Shown: in pieces, positions 1 through 54,548 of the stretch | Layout of the letters: the number at the start of each line of letters is the position of its first letter | Numbering within the stretch: position 1 is the stretch's first letter | Assembly (NCBI GenBank): GCA_902570035.1 | Contig: CACFWO010000004.1 | Span: 62,001 to 126,000, forward strand | Reading direction: 5' to 3' | Source: an uncultured SAR86 cluster bacterium | Lineage (GTDB): Bacteria; Pseudomonadota; Gammaproteobacteria; Magnimaribacterales; AG-339-G14 | Length of the DNA: 64,000 nt | Position numbers and translations under genes: made by a program | The notes under the pieces: model-generated | Told to the model about the DNA's origin: nothing | Database searches by the model: none | Seen by the model: only the letters and a program-made list of their open reading frames with translations

Positions 1-384
1 AAGTTCTTTGTATAAGGTTGCCATTTCGAAATCATCCTTGTAATTGTGTATCAAAGTATTGATATCATCATGAGATATAAATGGTTCATCACCTTGAACG
101 TTAATTATTAAATCTTCTTCATGACAATTTATTTTTGTTATTGCTTCGTGGATTCTATCTGTGCCTGTTTTATGATCTACTGAAGTCATAATCACTTGTC
201 CGTTAAATTCTAGAACTTGATCTCTTATCTTCTCAGAATCTGTTGCAATAAATATAAAATTGGCTTCAGACTTTCTACAAGATTCATACACCCATTGAAT
301 CATTGGCTTGCTACCAATTTTCTTTAACGGTTTACCGGGTAATCTAGATGAGGACCATCTAGCAGGGATCACTACATAATTCAT
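1..384 (-). CDS. kdsB: 3-deoxy-manno-octulosonate cytidylyltransferase (partial, C-terminus runs off the window start)
   Basis: Minus-strand translation from ATG at 384: MNYVVIPARWSSSRLPGKPLKKIGSKPMIQWVYE...INVQGDEPFI. This is the KdsB N-terminal signature. Its ATG overlaps the LpxK stop as ATGA. Not in the supplied ORF track. Confidence 0.93.
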   Translation of the reverse strand, partial: MNYVVIPARWSSSRLPGKPLKKIGSKPMIQWVYESCRKSEANFIFIATDSEKIRDQVLEFNGQVIMTSVDHKTGTDRIHEAITKINCHEEDLIINVQGDEPFISHDDINTLIHNYKDDFEMATLYKEL

Positions 385-3152
385 TTAGATTTAATTTCGG
401 CTAAGAAATCTTGTTCAAAGTTATCTGAAACTTCAGCTTCTATCTTTAAATACCAATAATTCGTATGGTCTAGAAATGAGCATTTTATTGCATCTTTTTC
501 TGTCATTACAGTAGGTTGATTATCCATAATTTCAAAATCTACGCTGTGAAAGTCATGATGATCAGGGAAAGCATATTCAGATATGTCAAAACCCAGTTGT
601 TTTAATAAATTAAAAAAATTAGATGGGTTTCCAATTCCTGCAACTGCATTTACTTCTTTTTTCAAGGGCCAGTCGAAAATATCGTATTCCTTTTGGCTTT
701 TCATATGAACCCACTTGAAAGGACGATATTTCATTTCATATTTTGCAACTGAAGGCCATTTTCTATTTGAGCTGATTGTAAAATCAACTGTTTCAATTCT
801 AGATTTTGGCTCTCTAAGTGGTCCTGCTGGAAGAAGTAGCTCGTTTCCAAACTTCCTATTTCCATCAATCATTAATATTTCTATATCTCTTCCAAGAGAA
901 AAGTGCTGCAAACCATCATCGCTTAAAATGACATTACTATCTGTATTTTCCATAAGATGTTTAGCTGCTTGTATCCTATTGGTACCAATGACCACTGGAC
1001 ATTGAGAATTTTTAAACATAATAGCCGGCTCATCTCCAGATTCTTCAATTGGGGTCTCTGAGTTAAGTAGCAGTGGATAGGTCTTTGATTTACTCAAATA
1101 ACCTCTTGAAATTATTCCTGGTTTAAGACCTTCTTTTTTAAGTAATTTGGCAAGGTAAATAATAATTGGAGTTTTTCCTGTGCCACCAACTGTTAGGTTA
1201 CCAACAACTATTGTAAGAAGATTGGGTTTCCATGAATTTGAAATTTGATGTCTTTTTTGTCTGTTAAAAAGAAATTGGTATATCCATGAAAAAGGAATAA
1301 GAAGTTTAGGCCAGAGGCTATTTTCGTACCATGCTTTTTCTAAGTTTGAAACATAGGATTTTGATGCATCTATATTTACTAGAAGATTAGAATTTGGTTC
1401 AGTATCAATATTTAATGTACCGTCATCAAAATCAAATTGATTTCTATAAAGTTGAAAATAAGGACCTTCAGATAATATTAATTGACTGTGCTTACCTCTT
1501 TCTACTATTTCTCCATTTTGAAGAACTAAAATTTCATCTGCTTGCTCTACTGTTGAAAGTCTGTGGGCAATAGTAATTGTAGTTTTACCTTCTTTTAAGT
1601 TAGTAATCGCATCTGTAATCAATCTTTCAGATTCAGAATCTAATGCAGAAGTAGCTTCGTCCAATATTAAAAAAGGTGAATTTTTTAAGATAGCTCTTGC
1701 AATGGCAATTCTCTGTTTCTGTCCTCCGGATAATAATGTTCCATTATCACCGATAACAGTTTTATACCCATCAGGAAAAGATTCTATGAATTGATGCGCA
1801 TTTGCTTTTTTTGCTGCTTCATAGACATCTTCTTCACTGGTGTCGATATCTCCATAAAAAATATTATTAAATATTGTGTCATTGAATAAAGTTATCTCTT
1901 GTCCTACGTAGGAGATTTGATCTCTTAAGGATTCCAAAGAAAGCTCTTCAATCCTTGTTCCATCGATAAAAATTCCGCCCTCTGTGGCGTCATAAAATCT
2001 AGGGATCAGATTAATTATGCTGCTTTTTCCTGCACCTGAGCTTCCAACAATAGCTAAATTAGAACCTTTTTCTAACTCAAAATTTATATTCTTAAGGGAA
2101 TATTCTTTTGAACTAGAATATTTAAGGGAGACATTATCAAATTTTATTTTTCCTTCAGAATTCTTAATTATTTTTGAGCCATCATCTTTTTCTGGAGTTT
2201 CATCAATTTGCTTGAAAATATCTTCTGCTGCTGCAATACCTTTTTGGAACATAACATTAGTAGAAGATAATTGTCTGATTGGTTTTGCTAGCATTCCTGC
2301 ACTACCAAAGAAAGCTATAAATGTTCCTGATGACATTGATGTGATTACAGAGGGATCTAAGGCAAACCAAGTGATTAATGCTAATGCCAGAGATATTATT
2401 AATTGAATAAGCGGAGAAGCAATTGAGTTTGTAGATTCTAATTTCAAATTTTGAATTCGATTTGCATCGCTCGCCTCATTAAATTTATCAATTTCAAGAT
2501 TTTCATTACCGAAAATTTTTAATTCTTTATGAGCATTTATAGATTCTGAACTCACATGAGTAACATCACCCATGGCAGATTGAATTTTTTTACTAAGACG
2601 TCTTAATCTTTTCCCAGCAATAGAAACAATAAAGCCAATTAAGGGTGCTGCAATTATTAAGACTAGGGTTAATTTCCAATTTAAGTAAATTAAGTAACCT
2701 AATAGTCCTATTACTATCAAGCCTTCTCTTATAATAATCTTGACTGCATCAGTAACTGCACTACTAACCTGCATTACATTAAAAGTAATTCTGGATAATA
2801 AATGACCACTGGAGGATTTATCATAAAAACTCACTGGCATCGAAATCAATGATTTGAATAAATCTACTCTCAAATTGTGAATTAATTTATTCGAAATAAA
2901 GGCCATAAAAAAATTTGAAAGATAAAAACCGATTCCTCTTATTAGAGCTATGGCTATAAGTGCAAGAGGTAAGATTGTTTGGACTGTTTGATTTGGATTT
3001 TCTATAAAATCAACTATTCTTCTTAACCATTCCGCTGCCCCTACTTGAGCTGCAGCAAATAATACAAATCCAAAAAAACTTATCAAGAAATAAGGAATGC
3101 TTGAAGAAACATAGCCAAAAAGACGTGCAAGATATGAAGTATTGCTTTTCAT
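381..3152 (-). CDS. Fused lipid A export ABC transporter (MsbA) and tetraacyldisaccharide 4'-kinase (LpxK)
   Basis: Single 923-aa ORF. The N-terminal half has the ABC exporter TM domain plus Walker A GSSGAGKSS, LSGGQKQR and ILDEATSALD. The C-terminal part has LpxK motifs VVGNLTVGGTGKTP, ISRGY, DDGLQH and LLPAGPLREP. Confidence 0.93.
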   Translation of the reverse strand: MKSNTSYLARLFGYVSSSIPYFLISFFGFVLFAAAQVGAAEWLRRIVDFIENPNQTVQTILPLALIAIALIRGIGFYLSNFFMAFISNKLIHNLRVDLFKSLISMPVSFYDKSSSGHLLSRITFNVMQVSSAVTDAVKIIIREGLIVIGLLGYLIYLNWKLTLVLIIAAPLIGFIVSIAGKRLRRLSKKIQSAMGDVTHVSSESINAHKELKIFGNENLEIDKFNEASDANRIQNLKLESTNSIASPLIQLIISLALALITWFALDPSVITSMSSGTFIAFFGSAGMLAKPIRQLSSTNVMFQKGIAAAEDIFKQIDETPEKDDGSKIIKNSEGKIKFDNVSLKYSSSKEYSLKNINFELEKGSNLAIVGSSGAGKSSIINLIPRFYDATEGGIFIDGTRIEELSLESLRDQISYVGQEITLFNDTIFNNIFYGDIDTSEEDVYEAAKKANAHQFIESFPDGYKTVIGDNGTLLSGGQKQRIAIARAILKNSPFLILDEATSALDSESERLITDAITNLKEGKTTITIAHRLSTVEQADEILVLQNGEIVERGKHSQLILSEGPYFQLYRNQFDFDDGTLNIDTEPNSNLLVNIDASKSYVSNLEKAWYENSLWPKLLIPFSWIYQFLFNRQKRHQISNSWKPNLLTIVVGNLTVGGTGKTPIIIYLAKLLKKEGLKPGIISRGYLSKSKTYPLLLNSETPIEESGDEPAIMFKNSQCPVVIGTNRIQAAKHLMENTDSNVILSDDGLQHFSLGRDIEILMIDGNRKFGNELLLPAGPLREPKSRIETVDFTISSNRKWPSVAKYEMKYRPFKWVHMKSQKEYDIFDWPLKKEVNAVAGIGNPSNFFNLLKQLGFDISEYAFPDHHDFHSVDFEIMDNQPTVMTEKDAIKCSFLDHTNYWYLKIEAEVSDNFEQDFLAEIKSK

Positions 3153-10563: not shown

Positions 10564-11094
10564 TTAATCAATTATAGAAAAGATTTCTTCAATTGAGTCA
10601 TATAAATTGAACATATTGAATGTTTTTTCATTAAAAAAACCTTCATCTTTTGCGTGCTTAAGAAATATTTTTAGTGAATCATAAAAGCCGTTCGTGTTTA
10701 GGATAAAAATTGGTTTATCTATAATGTGAAGTTGATTCCATGCCATGATTTCAAAGATCTCCTCATATGATCCGACTCCTCCTGGTAACAAAATAAAACA
10801 ATCAGCAGCATCAGACATAAGTTGTTTTCTTTCATGCATGGTTTGAACAATTTTTAATTCCTGGATACTCTCATGGCCTGCCTCCATATCAAGCAGTCTT
10901 TCAGTAATAACTCCATAAACGTCACCTCCTTCAGAAAGACAGCCGTTTGCGAGCTCATTCATCAAGCCTACTCCTCCTCCTCCATAAACAAGTTTATGGT
11001 TTGAGATAGCAATTTGTTTACCTAATTCAAAGGCTGTTTCGGCATAAACAGAATCCTTACCAATTGATGAACTTAGAAAGACGCAAATATTCAT
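10564..11094 (-). CDS. LOG family protein (TIGR00730-type)
   Basis: VYGGGGVGLMNELANG, LLPGGVGSYEEIFEIMAWNQL. The first 12 residues of the ORF-track version are tRNA read-through; start revised to ATG at 11094. Confidence 0.88.
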   Translation of the reverse strand: MNICVFLSSSIGKDSVYAETAFELGKQIAISNHKLVYGGGGVGLMNELANGCLSEGGDVYGVITERLLDMEAGHESIQELKIVQTMHERKQLMSDAADCFILLPGGVGSYEEIFEIMAWNQLHIIDKPIFILNTNGFYDSLKIFLKHAKDEGFFNEKTFNMFNLYDSIEEIFSIID

Positions 11095-11102
11095 TTTTAT
11101 AA

Positions 11103-11194
11103 TGGCGGAGGGGGTGGGATTCGAACCCACGAGGCCATTTCTGACCTGCTGGTTTTCAAGACCAGTGCATTCAACCAGACTCTGCCACCCCTCC
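11103..11194 (-). tRNA. tRNA-Ser (anticodon TGA)
   Basis: GGAGGGGTGGCAGAGTCTGGTTGAATGCACTGGTCTTGAAAACCAG...GGTTCGAATCCCACCCCCTCCGCCA; acceptor stem, long variable arm, T-loop and encoded CCA. Confidence 0.95.
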
Positions 11195-15500: not shown

Positions 15501-15881
15501 TCAATAAGTCAGACATCTATATGTAATTTGGCTTTTATGTTTTCCTGAATCGAATATTTCTTTTATTTCTCCTTTTTCAATATCCAGCATCAAATTCCAA
15601 TTTCCATAAGAATTATTTAAATTTGAAATTTTCTTGTTAGCTTTTATAAATTTTTTACTCTTTCCTGTAATTTTGTATTTCAAAGGTGTTAACTTAAATT
15701 TTTGAGGATATTTTAAAATTTCATTTTTTTTAAAATCTATTTCATAAATTAATACCATCCTGGTCTGATCGATGGTTTTTTTTCCTTTTTCGTAATGAAT
15801 ACTTTGAACATTCTCACAATTTAATTTCATATCCATTGACAAAAGTGTGGGCGCAAATAAAAGAAAAATTAAATATTTCAT
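15501..15881 (-). CDS. Hypothetical secreted protein
   Basis: 126-aa ORF with an N-terminal hydrophobic signal; no family recognised. Confidence 0.55.
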   Translation of the reverse strand: MKYLIFLLFAPTLLSMDMKLNCENVQSIHYEKGKKTIDQTRMVLIYEIDFKKNEILKYPQKFKLTPLKYKITGKSKKFIKANKKISNLNNSYGNWNLMLDIEKGEIKEIFDSGKHKSQITYRCLTY

Positions 15882-16657
15882 TAGAATAAGGATGAAGAAT
15901 TACCTCCATCCACTGAAATATTTTGACCTGAAATATATGAAGCTTGTTCGGAGCATAAAAAGCATACAATGCTAGCAAATTCTTCTACTGTTCCCATTCG
16001 TCCAGCAGAAAGTTGTTTTTCCATTGAATCTTTAGCTTCTTCAAAAGATACCTTCATCAATTCTGATTGCATTTCAATTATTTGAGTTTGTCTGTCTGTA
16101 TCAATTCTTTCAGGGAGAACATTATTGATGGTTATATTATGTTTAGCTACATCTCTTGATAAGGCTTTGGATATCCCGTGAAGGCCTGATCTTGCGCTGG
16201 TTGATAATCCCAACAGAATATTTGGATTTTTTACCATAGCAGATGTGATATTAACTATTCTGCCAAATTTTCTTTTTTTCATGCCAGGAATTACATCCTG
16301 CATAAATAATGTAGAAGATAAAAAATTTGATTTAAAAGCATCAATGAAATCAGACTCGGTCCAGTCATAGAAATTCCCTGGAGGGGGGCCACCGGAATTA
16401 TTAATAAGTATGTCTGGATCAGTACACTTTTCTAAAAGTCCCTTTCTTGTATCTTCATCTTCAATTTTTCCTAAGACATAATCGACAATAAAACCAGCTT
16501 GAGTGAATTCTTTCACTGTCTGTTCTAGAGATTTTTCGTTTACTCCGTTAAGGAATATTTTGACTCCCTCTTTTGCAAGAGACCAAGCGCAGGCTTTCCC
16601 TAGACCTCTGCTTGATGCCGGAATAATTGCTTTTTTATCAATTAATCCAAAATCCAA
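15881..16657 (-). CDS. SDR family oxidoreductase
   Basis: PASSRGLGKACAWSLAKEG, NNSGGPPPG, ITINNVLPERIDT, ISGQNISVDGG. Confidence 0.85.
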   Translation of the reverse strand: MDFGLIDKKAIIPASSRGLGKACAWSLAKEGVKIFLNGVNEKSLEQTVKEFTQAGFIVDYVLGKIEDEDTRKGLLEKCTDPDILINNSGGPPPGNFYDWTESDFIDAFKSNFLSSTLFMQDVIPGMKKRKFGRIVNITSAMVKNPNILLGLSTSARSGLHGISKALSRDVAKHNITINNVLPERIDTDRQTQIIEMQSELMKVSFEEAKDSMEKQLSAGRMGTVEEFASIVCFLCSEQASYISGQNISVDGGNSSSLF

Positions 16658-17629
16658 TTAGACGCCCTCAGAATTACCAAATGTAGCTGTAATATCTGGT
16701 CCCCATTGCATTCCTGCAGCTTCTGAAATATCTATTATTCCTGGCTTAACTTTATTATCAAATAAATCTCCATCAGTTTGATGCTCATGTACATGACCGT
16801 ATGGAGAACGCCAATAATCAAAAATTTGACTGCCTGCAAAATGGCGTCCTATCCCCCACTCATGTCTATAACTTTTTTCCTTAAGAACCTCATGACCTAA
16901 AAAAATGTCATCCACTTCAACGACTTCATAGGCGCAATGATTGAAACCACTTTTAAGATCCGATGAAAGATTACTTTGTAGAAGAAAAGAATGATGATCA
17001 GTTAATTTATTTCCTAGATCACATCTACAAAAAAGTGCTACATAAATACCAGAGCCTTTACCGAGTTCTACCTTGTCAGAAGGTATAAGACCTAAATGTT
17101 TGTTATACCAATCAAAAGAAACCGATGGATCATTAACATTGATTGCAAGATGACCTAGTTTTTTTATTTTTGAACTTCGAGGTTTGCCAACCCTTCTTGG
17201 TTGATTTTTTCTTGGACTAGTTTCTTTGCCTATACCGCCAGAATTAAATGGTTCTGCAACGAGATCTTTCTTATTAAATTTTTTCGTTTTCATGCCAAAT
17301 ATCACTTCTACTTTTAGACCATCCGGATCCAAGGCTTCAACTACAAAACCACCTCCAGGTGATTTTAATTTTTTAACTTCACTAAAATCTTCTGTTTTAG
17401 ATAATTTGTTTAAGTCGTTCATAGATTTTGCATAAAAAGCAGATCCGATAAATTTCTTTTTTCCTTTGATCGTCTTATGAATAAATTTATGCGGCCCTAG
17501 ACCTTGCATATAAAGCTCAGTACTAGTCTTTTTTGTAGTAACTAATCCAAAATCTTTAAGAAATGCTTCTTGTTTATTTAAACTTGGTACTTGCAAAATA
17601 GGATATGCAACATCTATAACTTTAATCAT
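16658..17629 (-). CDS. Two-domain VOC / extradiol ring-cleavage dioxygenase-like protein
   Basis: Second VOC domain carries GHLAI...NHCAYEV...GHVHEHQTDGD, consistent with the His-His-Glu metal triad. Confidence 0.78.
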   Translation of the reverse strand: MIKVIDVAYPILQVPSLNKQEAFLKDFGLVTTKKTSTELYMQGLGPHKFIHKTIKGKKKFIGSAFYAKSMNDLNKLSKTEDFSEVKKLKSPGGGFVVEALDPDGLKVEVIFGMKTKKFNKKDLVAEPFNSGGIGKETSPRKNQPRRVGKPRSSKIKKLGHLAINVNDPSVSFDWYNKHLGLIPSDKVELGKGSGIYVALFCRCDLGNKLTDHHSFLLQSNLSSDLKSGFNHCAYEVVEVDDIFLGHEVLKEKSYRHEWGIGRHFAGSQIFDYWRSPYGHVHEHQTDGDLFDNKVKPGIIDISEAAGMQWGPDITATFGNSEGV

Positions 17630-17652
17630 GTTTTTATTCTAAAATATTTTAA

Positions 17653-19116
17653 ATGTCAGACAAAATTTTTGATATTGGAATTATTGGTTACGGTCCGGTT
17701 GGTGCAACTTTATCTGGCTTGCTATCATCACTTGGGCTTAGTGTGGTAGTTATAGATAAAAATAAAGGAGTTAGTCCAACAGCTAGAGCAATAAATACAG
17801 ATTCTGAGCAACTTAGAACGTTTAATTTTCTCAATATTACAACTGAAGTAATTGCTAATTCAAGAAAATTAAAAAAAGTACATTTTACAGATTCAGAGTT
17901 CAATCCATATTCAACGATTGATATTCCAGAAAAGGATAAATTAGGATGGCCCCCTACTCTTCTTTTTTATCAGCCAGAGCTAGAGACCATAATTAGAAGT
18001 AATAATCTAAACTACAAAAATTTAAAAATATTGGAAAATGCCGAGGCAGTAAATATTCAAAACACTAACCCTGTTCAGATAGATATTAAAAATAATAGAA
18101 AAGATTCAACAGTTTATTGTAAATATCTTGTAGGTTGTGACGGAGCAAATAGTTTTGTTAGGAAATATATTAAAGCAAAGTTAATTGATTTTGGTTTTGA
18201 TCAAGATTGGATTGTTATTGATGCTCATACAACAAAGCAAATAGATATTTCAAAAGATGAAGCTAAGCAAATATGTGATCCAAATCGATTAAAGACATAT
18301 GTTCCTGGCAGGAGAAATCACAAAAGATTTGAATTCAAACTTCTTAAGGGAGAAACAAAAAAAGACTTCTCTAATAAAAAAATATGGGAGCTTTTGTCTC
18401 CTTGGATAAATAAAAATAACAGCAAAATAGAAAGAGCAGTAGTTTATAAATTTCATGCCTGTATCGCAGATAAGTGGAGAGATAAAAATATATTTATTGC
18501 AGGCGATGCTGCACATCAAATGCCTCCGTTTCTTGGTGCTGGAATGGGGACAGGTATAAGAGACGCATTTAATTTAGCATGGAAAATTTATTTGATAATA
18601 AAAGGCATGGCTGAAGAGAACCTTCTAGAAACCTATCAACAAGAGAGAGAACCTCATGCAAATTGGACTATTCAACAGGCAAAACTAATTGGCCAAATGA
18701 TGGAGCAATTTTCATACAGAGAAAAGGGAGAAAAATATGTACCCTCTAGCAAAGGTTATGGTGAAGTTTTCCCTCACTTGACCAAAGGATATTATGGTGA
18801 TCCATCTGATGGACTTATCGCAACTCCATTTTGTAGATTTGATTTAGATCATTCCGGTAAAGATAGCGATGAATATTTTGGGTGGAATTTTGGATTGATT
18901 TCCAAAAAAAAATTACCGAAAGAAATAAACTTAATTTTAAAGAAAATGAATATTAAAGTTCTTTCAGTCAACGATAATAAACTTAAAAATTATTTCAAGG
19001 AAGCAAACTACTTATTAATAAGACCAGATAAATACTTATTTTCTCGGTCGAAAACCAACTCTGATTTAAAGAAAGCTTTAAGTGAATTAGAAAACCAATT
19101 TTCTCTAATTACATAA
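17653..19116 (+). CDS. FAD-dependent aromatic-ring monooxygenase (MhpA/PheA-TfdB family-like)
   Basis: IIGYGPVGATLSGLLSSLGLSVVVIDK; GCDGANSFVRK; FIAGDAAHQMPPFLGAGMGTGIRDAFNLAWK. Confidence 0.85.
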   Translation: MSDKIFDIGIIGYGPVGATLSGLLSSLGLSVVVIDKNKGVSPTARAINTDSEQLRTFNFLNITTEVIANSRKLKKVHFTDSEFNPYSTIDIPEKDKLGWPPTLLFYQPELETIIRSNNLNYKNLKILENAEAVNIQNTNPVQIDIKNNRKDSTVYCKYLVGCDGANSFVRKYIKAKLIDFGFDQDWIVIDAHTTKQIDISKDEAKQICDPNRLKTYVPGRRNHKRFEFKLLKGETKKDFSNKKIWELLSPWINKNNSKIERAVVYKFHACIADKWRDKNIFIAGDAAHQMPPFLGAGMGTGIRDAFNLAWKIYLIIKGMAEENLLETYQQEREPHANWTIQQAKLIGQMMEQFSYREKGEKYVPSSKGYGEVFPHLTKGYYGDPSDGLIATPFCRFDLDHSGKDSDEYFGWNFGLISKKKLPKEINLILKKMNIKVLSVNDNKLKNYFKEANYLLIRPDKYLFSRSKTNSDLKKALSELENQFSLIT

Positions 19117-45550: not shown

Positions 45551-46687
45551 TTACATCTCTTCATAAACAGCTTTTTCCATTACTTCTAGCAAACCCTTAC
45601 ATTTTTCGTCGTAATGCGGTGATAATTGCATCATTACAGTACCAGCAATTTTTGATTGTGGATCAATCCAAAAATAAGTGTTAAAAATACCTGACCATGA
45701 TAAAGATCCTTTTTTTCTTCTATCAGGTATATCCTCTTCGTTGATCAAAAAACCGTATCCCCATTTTTTCTTTATTTCCGGAAACCATTCGTTTCCATGA
45801 ACCAGAACAGGGTTAAACGTAGGTTGATAGGAATAATTTAAATCGCCTATTTGATTTGTGGTCATAAGAGAAGTGAGTGAATCAGATAAAAGTGGATTTG
45901 TATCTGAAAGGAAAATTCTCATAAATTTACAATAATCTGATGGATTAGAAAGAATTCCACCGCCGCCGCTAAAAAATGACTGAACAGAATCATCAAAAAG
46001 ACCGGTGGAATGAATAAAATTTCCATTATCCATAAGGTGCATCTCTGCCAACCTATCTTTTCCTAAAAAGTCGGGATCGAAAGACGTATCGTTCATCCCC
46101 AGAGGATCAAAAACAAATTCCCTACAAATCTCTTCTAAATTTTTATTTAATAATTTTTCTATGATGACTCCAACCCAATCAAGACCGACCCCATATTCCC
46201 ATCTAGAGTCAGGATGATATGAAAGCGGAACGTTTATAAAGTTACCTTCTTTATCTGTGAGAGGAGCAATCTTTTCTTCTAAGATGAGGTGAGCAAGCAG
46301 AGGATCATGAAAATCATATGCAAATCCTGAAGTATGAGCTAGCAAATGATGAAGTGTGATGTCCTTGTTAGCTTTTTCATAAATAACTTTTCCATCTTGA
46401 AGTTTTCCTACCTCTAAATCTTTTAGATCTGAATGAAAATTATGAACAGGTTTATCTAAATCAATCAGTCCTAGTTCAACACACTTAAGTGCTGCAAAAG
46501 TAACTATAGGCTTTGTCATCGAAGCAATTCTATAAAGAGTACTATTCGAAGGTGGTTTATCTTCTCCTTCGAGTTGGTTGCCATAGTGCTCTAGAAAAAC
46601 TGTTTCGTGTTCATTAGTAACCGCAAAGGATGCAAAAGGAATGTTTTCTTGATCTATTTTCTCTTTTATTTTATTTTGAATATTCAT
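45551..46687 (-). CDS. Beta-lactamase-family serine hydrolase
   Basis: YRIASMTKPIV (SxxK), YGVGLDWVG (Yx[NG]-like), HGNEWF region. The N-terminal MRVRSPLPAPLIN is tRNA read-through; start revised to 46687. Confidence 0.87.
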   Translation of the reverse strand: MNIQNKIKEKIDQENIPFASFAVTNEHETVFLEHYGNQLEGEDKPPSNSTLYRIASMTKPIVTFAALKCVELGLIDLDKPVHNFHSDLKDLEVGKLQDGKVIYEKANKDITLHHLLAHTSGFAYDFHDPLLAHLILEEKIAPLTDKEGNFINVPLSYHPDSRWEYGVGLDWVGVIIEKLLNKNLEEICREFVFDPLGMNDTSFDPDFLGKDRLAEMHLMDNGNFIHSTGLFDDSVQSFFSGGGGILSNPSDYCKFMRIFLSDTNPLLSDSLTSLMTTNQIGDLNYSYQPTFNPVLVHGNEWFPEIKKKWGYGFLINEEDIPDRRKKGSLSWSGIFNTYFWIDPQSKIAGTVMMQLSPHYDEKCKGLLEVMEKAVYEEM

Positions 46688-46696
46688 ATTAATTAG

Positions 46697-46771
46697 TGGA
46701 GCGGGCAGCGGGGATCGAACCCGCATCGTCAGCTTGGAAGGCTGAAGTAATAGCCATTATACCATGCCCGC
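46697..46771 (-). tRNA. tRNA-Gly (anticodon TCC)
   Basis: GCGGGCATGGTATAATGGCTATTACTTCAGCCTTCCAAGCTGACGATGCGGGTTCGATCCCCGCTGCCCGCTCCA. Confidence 0.95.
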
Positions 46772-49926: not shown

Positions 49927-50934
49927 TCATAAATTATTTTTAATAACTACCTTTCCAACTAATTTTCTTTTAGATAAATACTTCAAAGCTTCTTTAGCAT
50001 CAGTTAAATTAAATTCTTTACATATGTGGGGTTTTAAATTTCCTGTCTCTGCAAGTTCATAGATAATTTTTTTTGTTTCTGCTCCTTTTTCAGGGTCTCT
50101 AATACCATATTCACCAGCTCTGACGCCTATAACCGAAAATCCTTTTATCAAGGCAATATTTACTGGCAAGGTGGGTAATCTTCCGCTAGTAAAACCAACA
50201 ATCAATAATCTTCCATTCCAATTTATACATCGAATAGATTCATCAAAAACATCTCCACCGACAGGATCGTAAATTAAATCAGCTCCCTTCCCATTGGTTA
50301 AATCTTTAACCTCCTCTCTAAAAGCAGTAATGCCATCCTTAAGGGTATTCACAACATGATCTGCTCCCCAAGATTTAACAATTTCAAGTTTCTTACCAGA
50401 AGTTCCTGTTGCAATTACCCTATTTCCAAACATTTTTGCAAGTTGAACCGCTGCCATGCCTACTCCACCCGATGAACCATGAATAAGAACAGTATCATCA
50501 GGTTTCATCTCCCCTCTCCAAATTAATGAAACGTATGCAGTGGTATAAGCTGTAGCGAATGCAGCTGCTTCTGCCATGTTTAAAGCATTAGGTTTTTTTG
50601 ATATTTTAGATGCAGGCAAAACAATGAAATTTGCCATTGCACCATGACCCCATCCGCCAAACATTACCTCATCATCAATTTTTAAATCTTTTACATCCGG
50701 ACCAATAGATTCTATGATTCCAGAACCTTCCATGCCCAAGAAAAAAGGTAATTCTGGTTTTCTTTGATATTTACCTTGAGACATCAACCAATCTGGAAAA
50801 TTTAATGAAGCGTGTGAGATTTTTATTTTTACCAAATCTTTTTCTATTTTTGGTAATTCTAAATTTCCTAAATTGATCCCGGACATATCCTCGGATAAAT
50901 AATGGCAAAGAAGACCTTGGGCTTGAAAAGACAT
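49927..50934 (-). CDS. NADPH:quinone oxidoreductase family protein
   Basis: FFLGMEGSGIIESIGPDVKDLKIDDEVM; VLIHGSSGGVGMAAVQLAKMFGNRVIATG. Confidence 0.88.
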   Translation of the reverse strand: MSFQAQGLLCHYLSEDMSGINLGNLELPKIEKDLVKIKISHASLNFPDWLMSQGKYQRKPELPFFLGMEGSGIIESIGPDVKDLKIDDEVMFGGWGHGAMANFIVLPASKISKKPNALNMAEAAAFATAYTTAYVSLIWRGEMKPDDTVLIHGSSGGVGMAAVQLAKMFGNRVIATGTSGKKLEIVKSWGADHVVNTLKDGITAFREEVKDLTNGKGADLIYDPVGGDVFDESIRCINWNGRLLIVGFTSGRLPTLPVNIALIKGFSVIGVRAGEYGIRDPEKGAETKKIIYELAETGNLKPHICKEFNLTDAKEALKYLSKRKLVGKVVIKNNL

Positions 50935-50936
50935 TT

Positions 50937-51335
50937 TTAAAATCTACCTATTATTTGTCTGCTTCTTTTTAAATCTGCCAATCTCAAAACAACTGCTGTT
51001 CCGATTGTTACTATGAAACAGAAGATTTGAGCAATCGTAATTCCCATAAAGAAAATAGCTACAAATTGGGTAATAACAAACGAAGTTATCACAATATAAA
51101 TAGGCCACAATGTTGAAGTTGGATTTTTTCCTGCAAAATATCTATAAATAAAATAACAAATGGTCAGATAAAGAGAAGGAATAATGGTTCTCAATCTCCA
51201 TTCATACATTGTCTCTTCAGTAAAACCCGCTCCAGGAAAAACACTTATTAAATTAGGATCAATGATAAAGAAGAGAGAAAGTGTTGCAAAAAACACAAAT
51301 AAGATAATCAAAATAACTTTAATAGATAAGTCCAT
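50937..51335 (-). CDS. Hypothetical multi-TM membrane protein
   Basis: 132 aa with about four hydrophobic segments. Confidence 0.6.
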   Translation of the reverse strand: MDLSIKVILIILFVFFATLSLFFIIDPNLISVFPGAGFTEETMYEWRLRTIIPSLYLTICYFIYRYFAGKNPTSTLWPIYIVITSFVITQFVAIFFMGITIAQIFCFIVTIGTAVVLRLADLKRSRQIIGRF

Positions 51336-51381
51336 TTCTCCCTCTGAATGTTAAAATTATAACAATTTACTTATAAAAATT

Positions 51382-51555
51382 ATGAATCCTTTTACTATTG
51401 CAAAAGACATAAAAAATATTGAAAAGATCCTAAAACCTGCCTTAGAAAAATATATTCAAGGCGCGGGTTTTGCAAAAAGCGCAGAAATTGATGAAATTCT
51501 TAAAAAGGTTGATGATCTGGAAAAGAGAATAAAAAATCTAGAAGAAAAACTATAA
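51382..51555 (+). CDS. Small coiled-coil protein (57 aa)
   Basis: MNPFTIAKDIKNIEKILKPALEKYIQGAGFAKSAEIDEILKKVDDLEKRIKNLEEKL*. Not in the ORF track; 3' end overlaps the convergent gene by 6 bp. Confidence 0.6.
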   Translation: MNPFTIAKDIKNIEKILKPALEKYIQGAGFAKSAEIDEILKKVDDLEKRIKNLEEKL

Positions 51556-52296
51556 CAGTCCAGGAATTACAGCTTTTCTATCTTTAGGATAATCTTCAAA
51601 GTTTTCTTTATACCAATTGTGGTTCGCGACAGCTCTAGGCAATAAATTGGCTACTGTCCAAAAGAAGAATACAAACCCGGCTGTACTGAATGTCATTATT
51701 GCCCAACCTAACCATTCTATAAACTCACCTAAATAGTTCGGGCATGATACATATTTATACAAAAATCCTTTAGGCACTTGATATCCTTCTTTTTTCTTTC
51801 TCAAAGAAAATAAAATTTCATCTGATTTGATGTTTATAAACATTCCTATAAAAAATAAGCTCAGACCTAAGAAAAATGGTATTGAGAAAAAGTGACTAGA
51901 TGTATAGTCTGATATATCAAATAACCAAGTTCCTTGGATATATACATTTACAAAATTAAATAGAAATGCTGACAAAGCTATAGTTACTGGCATGCTCTTA
52001 TTTTTTATTTTTGCTCTAATTGGCCATATAAAACTTCGATTAAAATAATGAATCATAAATAGGACAGCAGCAAAAATTGAAAAATTTGAACTGTTTGAAA
52101 AATTTAAAATCAAAAATATTAACATCAAGTAGAAAGCTGGAGATTCCATGAGAATCCAACCCCATCTAGAACTTATTTCAAACCCCCATCCTTTTTCTTG
52201 ATGTCTTCCGTAAGGAGCAGTTTGAAAAAATAAATAAATGAATACAGATAGACCAACCAAACTCCAAACCAGCATTACTAATTGGTGAGTAGTCAT
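51550..52296 (-). CDS. 3-oxo-5-alpha-steroid 4-dehydrogenase (SRD5A) family protein
   Basis: APYGRH near the N-terminus; C-terminal YVSCPNYLGEFIEWLGWAIMT...NWYKENFEDYPKDRKAVIPGLL matches the SRD5A1/2-DET2 C-terminal signature. Confidence 0.87.
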   Translation of the reverse strand: MTTHQLVMLVWSLVGLSVFIYLFFQTAPYGRHQEKGWGFEISSRWGWILMESPAFYLMLIFLILNFSNSSNFSIFAAVLFMIHYFNRSFIWPIRAKIKNKSMPVTIALSAFLFNFVNVYIQGTWLFDISDYTSSHFFSIPFFLGLSLFFIGMFINIKSDEILFSLRKKKEGYQVPKGFLYKYVSCPNYLGEFIEWLGWAIMTFSTAGFVFFFWTVANLLPRAVANHNWYKENFEDYPKDRKAVIPGLL

Positions 52297-53162
52297 TTCT
52301 TGCTTGGTAGAAGCATCAAAGAGGAAGTTTTTTCCATATAGTCTGCATAATCGGGTCTATTTTCTAGACTTCTGTTATCCATCATTGGAATAGATGCAAA
52401 TAAAAACATCATTAACATAGCTATAGGACAAATTAAAAGAAAAATAGAGCCATTTGATCCGATTAATCCAAATCCACATAATCCAAACCAAAAACCCACT
52501 TCACCCAGATAATTTGGATGACGAGAATATTTCCATAAACCTTCATTCATAGTTTTGCCCTTATTCTCAATGTTTGCTTTAAAAATATGCATCTGTTCAT
52601 CGGATATCTGTTCAAGTAACACCATAGAAAGAGCAAATATACACATCAAATAGTCTAATGAACTTACGCTTGAAGAATTTTCAATAAAGTAAAAATACAA
52701 AGGAAATAGACACAAATTTACAATTAAAGTAGGAAAAAGGTGAATACCAAAAAGATTAATAAACCATTTAAAAGATCCAAAAGTTTCGTATAGATTGACA
52801 TATCTAAAGTCCTCCTTTGATAAACCCGGCCAAGTACGTAACCAATTATGTGTTAATCTAAAAGCCCAATAACAAACTGGGATACCTACTAAAAATATGC
52901 GTTCCAAATTTAACCCATTTTGATCGGATAAAGCGATGAAAAAATAAATAGGCACTGGTGCTATCGACCAATAAGGATCATACAAACTAGAATTTGAATA
53001 GAAAGTACTAATTAAAAAAATTACTAAAGTGCTAACAACATGCGCAATAACAATATCTGCCCACAGATGAAATCCAAAAGGATCGGTAGCACTCAAACTA
53101 ACTGCTGCAGCTGAAAGACTAAGCGAATAGCAAAATATACATAAAATATGATGTGATTTCAT
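52293..53162 (-). CDS. DUF1295 / steroid-reductase-superfamily membrane protein
   Basis: YSRHPNYLGEVGFWFGLCGFGLI...RPDYADYMEKTSSLMLLPSKK. Confidence 0.83.
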   Translation of the reverse strand: MKSHHILCIFCYSLSLSAAAVSLSATDPFGFHLWADIVIAHVVSTLVIFLISTFYSNSSLYDPYWSIAPVPIYFFIALSDQNGLNLERIFLVGIPVCYWAFRLTHNWLRTWPGLSKEDFRYVNLYETFGSFKWFINLFGIHLFPTLIVNLCLFPLYFYFIENSSSVSSLDYLMCIFALSMVLLEQISDEQMHIFKANIENKGKTMNEGLWKYSRHPNYLGEVGFWFGLCGFGLIGSNGSIFLLICPIAMLMMFLFASIPMMDNRSLENRPDYADYMEKTSSLMLLPSKK

Positions 53163-53171
53163 AAATGTGAA

Positions 53172-54548
53172 CTATTTTTCTGGCTTAAATTTAACTGGTA
53201 CGTCTTGAATGGCGTTAACAAAATTATTTGGAGTTAAAATCATTTCACCGTCCTGCTCCATTTCAGGAAACCTTGCGAATATTTTTTCATAGACAACCTC
53301 TAACTGCATGTTAGCTGTGTGCTTTCCTAAACATAAATGTCGTCCGTAACCAAAAGCAAGATGTTTTTTTGCATTTTCTCTAGTTACATCGAATTTATTA
53401 GGGTTGGTGAAAATTTCTGGATCTCTGTTTGCCGCACCGTACCATAATGATACCTTTTCATTTGGTCCAATATCTTGAACTCCAATCTTTGTATCGCATT
53501 TTGTCGTTCTTCTCATAAACCTAACAGGAGAAACCATTCTGATTGATTCATGAACCATATTTGGTAAAAGACTTTTATCATTCAAAACTAGGTTTTTTTG
53601 ATCGGGATGCTCAGATAGTAAATTCATCGTTCCGCTAATAGAATTTCTAGTAGTATCATTTCCTGCGAAAATAATTAATAACCAAGAACCATCTAAATAC
53701 TCATTTGGCAGTTTTTCTCCTTCAATTTCGATGTTTGCAATAACAGATAAAAGATCATCTTTAGGATCCTTTCTTCTAGATTCGAGAATAGATCTTCCAT
53801 AATCAAACATCTCTGCGACCATATTAGTAAACATTTCTACTAAAGCTGGATCAGGAGCAGCTTGAGTGTGCTCTTCAGAAAATTCAATATCACCTTTTTC
53901 TGCTGCTTGGGTAGCTGCAATGAGTTGAGCCATTTCAAGAAATTTCATCCATTCGATGATTTTTGGTCTATCTTCTTCAGGTACTCCTAACATTTCACAC
54001 AATGTAAACATAGGAACTTCTGCAGAAACTGTGTCAACAAGATTACATCTTCCCAGAGGCGCAATTTGATCCAATAGCTGATCTACTTTTAGCTCTACTT
54101 TCTTTCTCAAATTAGATACGTACTTTGGATTAAAAAAAGCCATGTGTGGATTACGCATACTTAAGTGCAGCATGCCATCAAGGCTAAGCATATGATCCAT
54201 GGTTGATCTATACAAAGGTAAGTCATCTTGCTGCTCAAAACCATGAGTAAGTGCAGTACCGCCAGCTAGTTGAGATGAAAAAATTTCCTGATTTTTTGAT
54301 ACAAACTCAATATCTTTATATTTAGTCAAAACCCAAAATCCTGGTTCTGAGTCTTCAGTGCCCGTTTCATGATAATAAACAGGAGCATTATCTCTTAAAT
54401 CTGCAAAATGTTGATATGGCTCGTCACCTTTAGTAAAAAGCATGAGATCTGTTAAATCAAAATTTCTTTCAAATGGGAATTTTAGATTATATTTTGGAGA
54501 ATTAATCTTTACGAAGGGTTGCTTATCGCTGTTTAACTCTAGAGCCAT
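53172..54548 (-). CDS. Cytochrome P450
   Basis: AGNDTTR I-helix, ESIR ExxR, FGYGRHLCLGKHTA heme-Cys loop. Confidence 0.95.
   Translation of the reverse strand: MALELNSDKQPFVKINSPKYNLKFPFERNFDLTDLMLFTKGDEPYQHFADLRDNAPVYYHETGTEDSEPGFWVLTKYKDIEFVSKNQEIFSSQLAGGTALTHGFEQQDDLPLYRSTMDHMLSLDGMLHLSMRNPHMAFFNPKYVSNLRKKVELKVDQLLDQIAPLGRCNLVDTVSAEVPMFTLCEMLGVPEEDRPKIIEWMKFLEMAQLIAATQAAEKGDIEFSEEHTQAAPDPALVEMFTNMVAEMFDYGRSILESRRKDPKDDLLSVIANIEIEGEKLPNEYLDGSWLLIIFAGNDTTRNSISGTMNLLSEHPDQKNLVLNDKSLLPNMVHESIRMVSPVRFMRRTTKCDTKIGVQDIGPNEKVSLWYGAANRDPEIFTNPNKFDVTRENAKKHLAFGYGRHLCLGKHTANMQLEVVYEKIFARFPEMEQDGEMILTPNNFVNAIQDVPVKFKPEK

What the first reader, a model, noticed from the sequence alone, without database searches (positions are those of the whole stretch)
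49927..54548. P450, SRD5A-type steroid 5-alpha-reductase, DUF1295 and oxidoreductase cluster
Seen: on one strand, a cytochrome P450 (AGNDTTR, ESIR, FGYGRHLCLG), two overlapping membrane reductase-superfamily genes (4-bp overlap), a small membrane protein and a quinone oxidoreductase. The 248-aa protein carries the SRD5A C-terminal block SCPNYLGEFIEWLGWA...FEDYPKDRKAVIPGLL that I recognise from animal and plant steroid 5-alpha-reductases. Inference: a compact pathway that oxidises and reduces a sterol, steroid or isoprenoid-like lipid in an AT-rich marine bacterium. This is the window's best candidate for an undescribed metabolic system.
Basis: partly seen in the sequence, partly recalled or inferred. 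Interest (0 to 1): 0.7.

Follow-up and report, generated by a model that had tools for sequence, protein, structure and literature searches.

The report
SAR86 P450–steroid-reductase gene cluster
A group of five genes in an abundant, mostly uncultured ocean bacterium (SAR86) pairs an oxygenase resembling those that attack cholesterol side chains with a reductase of the human and plant steroid 5-alpha-reductase family, which suggests that these bacteria remodel sterols in seawater; the chemistry is untested.

Summary
Five intact minus-strand genes (49927-54548) encode a P450, a DUF1295 protein, an SRD5A-family (PF02544) protein, a 132-aa membrane protein without a known family, and a PIG3-type oxidoreductase. 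The window is SAR86.

The five-gene order is restricted to the genus (9/9 genomes). It joins two older blocks, but pairs of the same genes are also linked elsewhere in SAR86.

The SRD5A protein is closest to PbSRD5A, an assayed bacterial progesterone 5-alpha-reductase (E=2.5e-57). It keeps the NADPH ligands (N for H at one) and catalytic E and Y, but the Q of the "QEY" signature is M. No SAR86 homologue tested has Q (0/41), nor does any of seven other bacterial homologues.

The P450 is the only one in the genome and under 40% identical to every named reference tested; CYP125 (steroid C26-hydroxylase) ancestors score best. DUF1295 relatives sit 1-6 kb from a 3-ketosteroid delta1-dehydrogenase-like gene (KstD) in 10 of 12 SAR86 genomes that have one. 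No genome has both that gene and SRD5A.

Steroid catabolism in SAR86 is already proposed in the literature. The new part is a possible reductive, 5-alpha-type branch alternative to the KstD route. Function is inferred; substrates are unknown.

The parts
53172..54548 (-). Cytochrome P450, 458 aa, CYP125-like but under 40% identical to every named reference tested; proposed side-chain/terminal hydroxylase
   Evidence: only P450 in the genome; 54-98% identical copies across two SAR86 families
52293..53162 (-). DUF1295 (PF06966) membrane protein of the steroid-reductase-like fold group, 289 aa
   Evidence: adjacent to P450 in two genera; relatives 1-6 kb from KstD-like genes
51550..52296 (-). SRD5A-family (PF02544) reductase, 248 aa, MEY instead of QEY signature (M50, E51, Y84); 4-bp overlap with DUF1295
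   Evidence: 65 of 121 SAR86 genomes, rare in other Gammaproteobacteria
50937..51335 (-). 132-aa four-helix membrane protein without a known family; adjacent to SRD5A in two genera and about 4 kb downstream of the P450 in a third
49927..50934 (-). Zinc-type/PIG3-family quinone (enoyl) oxidoreductase, 335 aa
   Evidence: linked to SRD5A at 8-11 kb, same strand, in another SAR86 family
51382..51555 (+). 57-aa coiled-coil ORF convergent with and overlapping the 3' end of the SRD5A gene; conserved in the genus; role unknown, may separate the cluster into two transcripts
   Evidence: 79-100% identity in genus loci; weak phasin/coiled-coil similarity only

Best explanation
A genus-level cluster that modifies an imported sterol or steroid-like lipid. 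Proposed chemistry, all steps inferred from homology and linkage: the P450 hydroxylates the lipid at or near the end of its side chain, opening it to the beta-oxidation that SAR86 is reported to encode. The SRD5A-family protein uses NADPH to reduce the double bond of a 3-oxo-delta4 ring to the 5-alpha form. DUF1295 is a second membrane reductase of the same fold group acting on the same kind of substrate. The PIG3-type protein reduces or oxidises a further carbonyl/enoyl intermediate. The 132-aa membrane protein is an accessory of unknown role. In SAR86 this reductive branch replaces the oxidative one: genomes with a KstD-like delta1-dehydrogenase lack SRD5A and vice versa. Shown here: gene identity, cofactor-site conservation, linkage and the exclusion pattern. 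Not shown: any substrate or activity.
For: SRD5A: best solved relatives are PbSRD5A 7c83 (2.5e-57) and human SRD5A2 7bw1 (2.9e-38), far ahead of an enoyl-CoA reductase (7e-12). PbSRD5A reduces progesterone in vitro (PMC7815742). E54 and Y87 equivalents and most NADPH contacts are invariant in 41/41 SAR86 sequences. P450: best score to CYP125 ancestors, 375 bits against 275 for the next; CYP142/125/124 among other hits. Linkage: P450-DUF1295 adjacent in 9/9 and 13/13 genomes of two genera; SRD5A-132-aa gene in 9/9 and 12/12; SRD5A-QOR at 8-11 kb in 11 genomes of another family; P450-132-aa gene about 4 kb apart in 3/3 of another genus. DUF1295 relatives lie 1-6 kb from KstD-like genes in 10 of 12 genomes with one. 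SRD5A and KstD: 65 and 12 of 121 genomes, overlap 0. SAR86 steroid side-chain beta-oxidation genes and cyp125 reported (PMC11582366); steroid pathway in three SAR86 genomes (PMC4810484).
Against: QEY is MEY; Q56A/L abolished human SRD5A2 activity (PMC7815742). The P450 is under 40% identical to any named reference, and I could not build a tree with extant CYP125/124/142 proteins. The order is not kept outside the genus, where the genes often stand alone. The exclusion pattern rests on few lineages (two genera of one family, two of another), so the naive P of 5e-5 overstates it. KstD-like hits are below the NCBIfam cut-off (about 535 of 789 bits). The DUF1295 relatives beside KstD also follow an F420-biosynthesis operon, so their link could be to F420. 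No KstD-like hit at E<=1e-30 in this genus, so ring degradation is not supported here.
Confidence: 0.5

Rival explanations
1. The P450 and reductases act on non-steroid isoprenoids or branched lipids (phytol derivatives, carotenoid fragments, polyprenals) that SAR86 takes up; the reductases saturate alpha,beta-unsaturated carbonyls of those chains.
For: The CYP125 neighbourhood includes CYP124 (methyl-branched lipid hydroxylase) and CYP108 (terpineol) among the hits. The SRD5A family also holds the human polyprenol-pathway member SRD5A3 (stated in PMC7815742). The QEY glutamine is replaced. Phytanoyl-CoA dioxygenase genes are reported in SAR86 (PMC11582366).
Against: The SRD5A protein is much closer to steroid-active 7c83 and 7bw1 than to an enoyl-CoA reductase; SRD5A3 could not be compared. 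KstD-like genes neighbour the DUF1295 relatives.
Confidence: 0.25
2. No pathway: unrelated housekeeping or lipid-remodelling enzymes brought side by side when two conserved blocks joined in this genus.
For: Left block (thioesterase-MoxR-VWA-ABC-acyltransferase-P450) and right block (SRD5A-132 aa ... beta-lactamase-like/MBL/hydrolase) occur separately in sister genera. SAR86 genomes are compact and synteny is inherited.
Against: Four pairwise links among the same five genes recur in different SAR86 lineages, and the reductase pair overlaps by 4 bp in 9/9 genomes.
Confidence: 0.2
3. A biosynthetic role: the genes modify an endogenous sterol or hopanoid of the bacterium's own membrane.
For: Membrane reductases and one P450 resemble parts of sterol biosynthesis pathways (established knowledge of those pathways; the domains are).
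Against: No squalene/oxidosqualene cyclase domain over the Pfam cut-off in any of 61 SAR86 genomes, none at all in this genus.
Confidence: 0.05

Closest known systems
PbSRD5A (7c83) and human SRD5A2 (7bw1), NADPH steroid 5-alpha-reductases, PF02544
   Same: Full-length homology (41% and 37% identity), catalytic E and Y, NADPH ligands, C-terminal block
   Different: M in place of the signature Q; W and A for F94 and M98 near NADPH; encoded next to a P450 and DUF1295
[quoted passage not shown]
   Same: PF02544 protein with the same MEY motif, 39% identical; Bacteroides 5-alpha/5-beta-reductase and 3-beta-HSDH convert 3-oxoLCA to isoalloLCA (review PMC11271093)
   Different: Partners are an old-yellow-enzyme-type reductase and a short-chain dehydrogenase, not P450/DUF1295; that this plasmid gene is the assayed enzyme was not established
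CYP125 steroid C26-monooxygenase family
   Same: Highest-scoring P450 relative (ancestral CYP125, 375 bits by profile, 37% identity); same motifs
   Different: Below the usual 40% family threshold; longer F-G region; single P450, no ferredoxin beside it; extant CYP125 scores lower than several other families
SAR86 steroid catabolism described from genomes (PMC4810484, PMC11582366)
   Same: Same order of bacteria; cyp125-like and side-chain beta-oxidation genes reported
   Different: A text search of PMC11582366 for 5-alpha and DUF1295 found nothing; KstD-like hits absent in this genus

Membership tests
SRD5A / steroid 5-alpha-reductase (PF02544) | PF02544 domain over curated cut-off | tested here: met
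   166 bits against 22.6
SRD5A / steroid 5-alpha-reductase (PF02544) | NADPH-binding residues of PbSRD5A | tested here: met
   Y32, R34, W50, N159, D163, R170, Y177, N192, Y193, E196, T219, N222, R226 kept in the window protein; H230 is N
SRD5A / steroid 5-alpha-reductase (PF02544) | Q-E-Y signature described for steroid 5-alpha-reductases | tested here: not met
   M-E-Y; Q absent in 41/41 SAR86 and 7/7 other bacterial homologues. E and Y kept. It is therefore not filed as an authenticated steroid 5-alpha-reductase, only as an SRD5A-family member that may work like one
SRD5A / steroid 5-alpha-reductase (PF02544) | NADPH-dependent reduction of 3-oxo-delta4 steroids | not testable with these tools
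   needs assay
CYP125 | At least 40% identity to a CYP125 member | tested here: inconclusive
   37% to CYP125MRCA, below the threshold; only the reconstructed ancestor was aligned, extant CYP125A1 was not
CYP125 | Groups with CYP125 rather than CYP153/108/126/268 | tested here: inconclusive
   best profile score by 100 bits, but small reference set and forks with low support
CYP153 alkane hydroxylase | Groups with CYP153 | tested here: inconclusive
   31% identity, lower score
KstD-dependent (9,10-seco) steroid ring degradation | 3-ketosteroid delta1-dehydrogenase in the genome | tested here: not met
   no match at E<=1e-30 in this genus; present in 12 other SAR86 genomes; the window's genome is 87.5% complete
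Sterol/hopanoid biosynthesis | squalene-hopene/oxidosqualene cyclase | tested here: not met
   none over cut-off in 61 genomes

The most novel reading that the evidence does not exclude
SAR86 carries a previously undescribed aerobic-reductive sterol route in which a new CYP125-like P450 family opens the side chain while an MEY-type SRD5A enzyme and a DUF1295 reductase saturate the nucleus to 5-alpha-stanols/stanones. It is mutually exclusive with the KstD oxidative ring-opening route, and would be a surface-ocean source of 5-alpha-stanol-like, hard-to-degrade products.
Probability: 0.2. Interest if true: 0.8.

Novelty: new variant of a known kind. Interest (0 to 1): 0.5.

Why it matters
[quoted passage not shown] If these genes reduce sterols to 5-alpha products, that would explain part of the fate of algal sterols in seawater, add a bacterial counterpart of plant and animal 5-alpha-reduction, and give DUF1295 and the MEY form of SRD5A a testable function. 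It would also show that the published QEY signature does not mark all members of the family.

Tried and rejected
PDB search with DUF1295: no hit. Plasmid search for SRD5A relatives: two records only, without gene annotation. A P450 tree with extant CYP125/124/142/153A references was not possible; a five-reference tree left the position unresolved. Considered and rejected: endogenous sterol synthesis; the whole cluster as an order-wide SAR86 operon; the Q-to-M change as proof of lost steroid activity, because all seven other bacterial homologues tested also lack Q (M or F), including one in a gut bile-acid-type gene set. From memory only, not tested: plant DET2 also seems to carry MESP at that place. 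Paper searches found no study joining DUF1295 with bacterial steroid metabolism.

Full report
WHAT IS THERE. DUF1295 and SRD5A overlap by 4 bp, and hit coordinates show the same in all nine genomes of the genus. A 214-bp gap separates the SRD5A gene from the 132-aa gene. It holds a convergent 57-aa plus-strand ORF, 79-100% identical across the genus, so a single transcript cannot be assumed. The organism is SAR86 (named relatives).

THE SRD5A PROTEIN. PF02544 scores 166 bits. The best solved relatives are PbSRD5A (7c83, 2.5e-57) and human SRD5A2 (7bw1, 2.9e-38); a very-long-chain enoyl-CoA reductase follows at 7e-12. PbSRD5A is a bacterial enzyme with measured progesterone 5-alpha-reductase activity, and its paper defines a Q53-E54-Y87 signature and the NADPH contacts (PMC7815742). 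Aligned to it, 41 SAR86 sequences keep E54, Y87 and most NADPH contacts without exception. Position 53 is M (34), E (5) or F (2), never Q. Seven other bacterial homologues, from other Gammaproteobacteria, another member of the phylum, a Nocardia and a Phocaeicola, have M or F too. The Phocaeicola gene is followed by an old-yellow-enzyme-type reductase and a short-chain dehydrogenase (types judged from the sequences). [quoted passage not shown] So MEY appears to be the common bacterial form, but because Q56A/L inactivates the human enzyme, the signature test counts as not met and steroid activity remains to be shown.

THE P450. It has the expected P450 motifs and is the only PF00067 hit in the genome. 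Orthologous copies of 54-98% identity run through two SAR86 families; 155 of 203 genomes have some match. Against solved structures the single sequence and a SAR86 profile score best with an ancestral CYP125 (375 bits by profile; next CYP268, CYP153-like and CYP126 at 271-275). Identity to CYP125MRCA is 37%, to the others 30-33%. It is best described as a probable new family in the CYP125-containing group. Ancestral sequences attract distant relatives, so the CYP125 assignment is a lead.

NEIGHBOURHOOD AND HISTORY. The five-gene order occurs throughout the genus (four loci read; coordinates for all nine) and was found nowhere else. In sister genera the P450 ends a block thioesterase-MoxR-VWA-ABC-ABC-acyltransferase-P450, while SRD5A lies elsewhere, in one genus followed by the 132-aa gene and further by MBL and hydrolase genes of the window's right flank. 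The cluster is therefore a junction of two older blocks. Still, pairs of the same genes are linked in other lineages: P450-DUF1295 adjacent in a second genus (13/13), SRD5A-132-aa gene adjacent in a second genus (12/12), SRD5A and the oxidoreductase 8-11 kb apart on the same strand in another family (11 genomes with both on one contig), P450 and the 132-aa gene about 4 kb apart in a third lineage (3/3). Each is probably one evolutionary event, so the count of independent links is about four.

LINK TO STEROID GENES. A KstD-type model finds long matches in 12 of 121 SAR86 genomes, below its strict cut-off, and none at E<=1e-30 in this genus. In 10 of the 12 the nearest relative of the window's DUF1295 (about 38-49% identical) lies 1.1-5.6 kb away; one more is 50 kb away and one is on another contig. 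SnoaL-fold proteins and short-chain dehydrogenases stand beside these KstD-like genes. SRD5A (65 genomes) and KstD (12) never occur together (naive hypergeometric P 4.8e-5); shared ancestry weakens this, as the KstD carriers are two genera of one family and two of another. SRD5A is found in over half of the SAR86 genomes searched, but in only 4 genomes outside SAR86 among 369 drawn from the class and 1 among 399 drawn from the phylum, so it marks the order.

LITERATURE. Bergstrand et al. 2016 found steroid degradation genes in three SAR86 genomes (PMC4810484). The 2024 SAR86 isolate paper reports steroid side-chain beta-oxidation across three families, cyp125-like genes in one family and ring-degradation genes in a few genera (PMC11582366). 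A search of its main text for 5-alpha and DUF1295 finds nothing. No squalene cyclase domain passes cut-off in 61 genomes, which argues for use of external rather than self-made sterols.

INTERPRETATION. Most likely (about 0.5) the genes act on an imported sterol or steroid-like lipid: the P450 on the side chain, SRD5A and DUF1295 as membrane reductases of the ring or an enone intermediate, the PIG3 protein on another carbonyl or enoyl step. The exclusion with KstD suggests a reductive alternative to delta1-dehydrogenation. Which steps occur, and on which compound, cannot be read from sequence. Rivals are isoprenoid or branched-lipid substrates (0.25) and a chance juxtaposition of unrelated enzymes (0.2).

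VERDICT. Real, well-formed and worth an enzyme assay; a new variant within a known theme (SAR86 and bacterial steroid metabolism), not a categorically new system.

Noticed in passing
L162:1005-7209 (also L161, L165-L168, L176, in part L163, L164): Several SAR86 genera carry what looks like a full coenzyme F420 biosynthesis operon (F420-NADP oxidoreductase, CofE, CofD, CofC, FbiC-type fused radical SAM) ending in a DUF1295 gene that overlaps it by 4 bp and is followed by a KstD-like gene. A paper search for SAR86 with F420 gave no study of it judging by titles and abstracts.
   Followed up: partly
window 381-3152 (-): One 923-aa ORF reads as an MsbA-type ABC exporter fused to an LpxK-type kinase (judged from the sequence by eye).
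   Followed up: no
window 15881-19116: A short-chain dehydrogenase and an extradiol-dioxygenase-like protein, with a divergent MhpA-like FAD hydroxylase: a possible small aromatic ring-cleavage cluster.
   Followed up: partly
window 51382-51555 (+): 57-aa coiled-coil/phasin-like ORF convergent with the SRD5A gene, conserved across the genus.
   Followed up: partly
L040:37-7983: In a sister genus the SRD5A gene follows a voltage-gated-type ion channel and a 2333-aa cadherin-repeat protein.
   Followed up: no
window 45551-46771 and 10564-11194: The listed ORF starts run into tRNA genes (tRNA-Gly 46697-46771, tRNA-Ser 11103-11194), so the true starts are probably downstream.
   Followed up: no
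L060:6992-10500 and L051:8810-11088: In one other SAR86 family SRD5A is flanked by a GMC oxidoreductase and a 3-beta-HSD/HpnA-like dehydrogenase on the opposite strand; in another it is followed by a pair of acyl-CoA dehydrogenases similar to PimC/PimD.
   Followed up: partly
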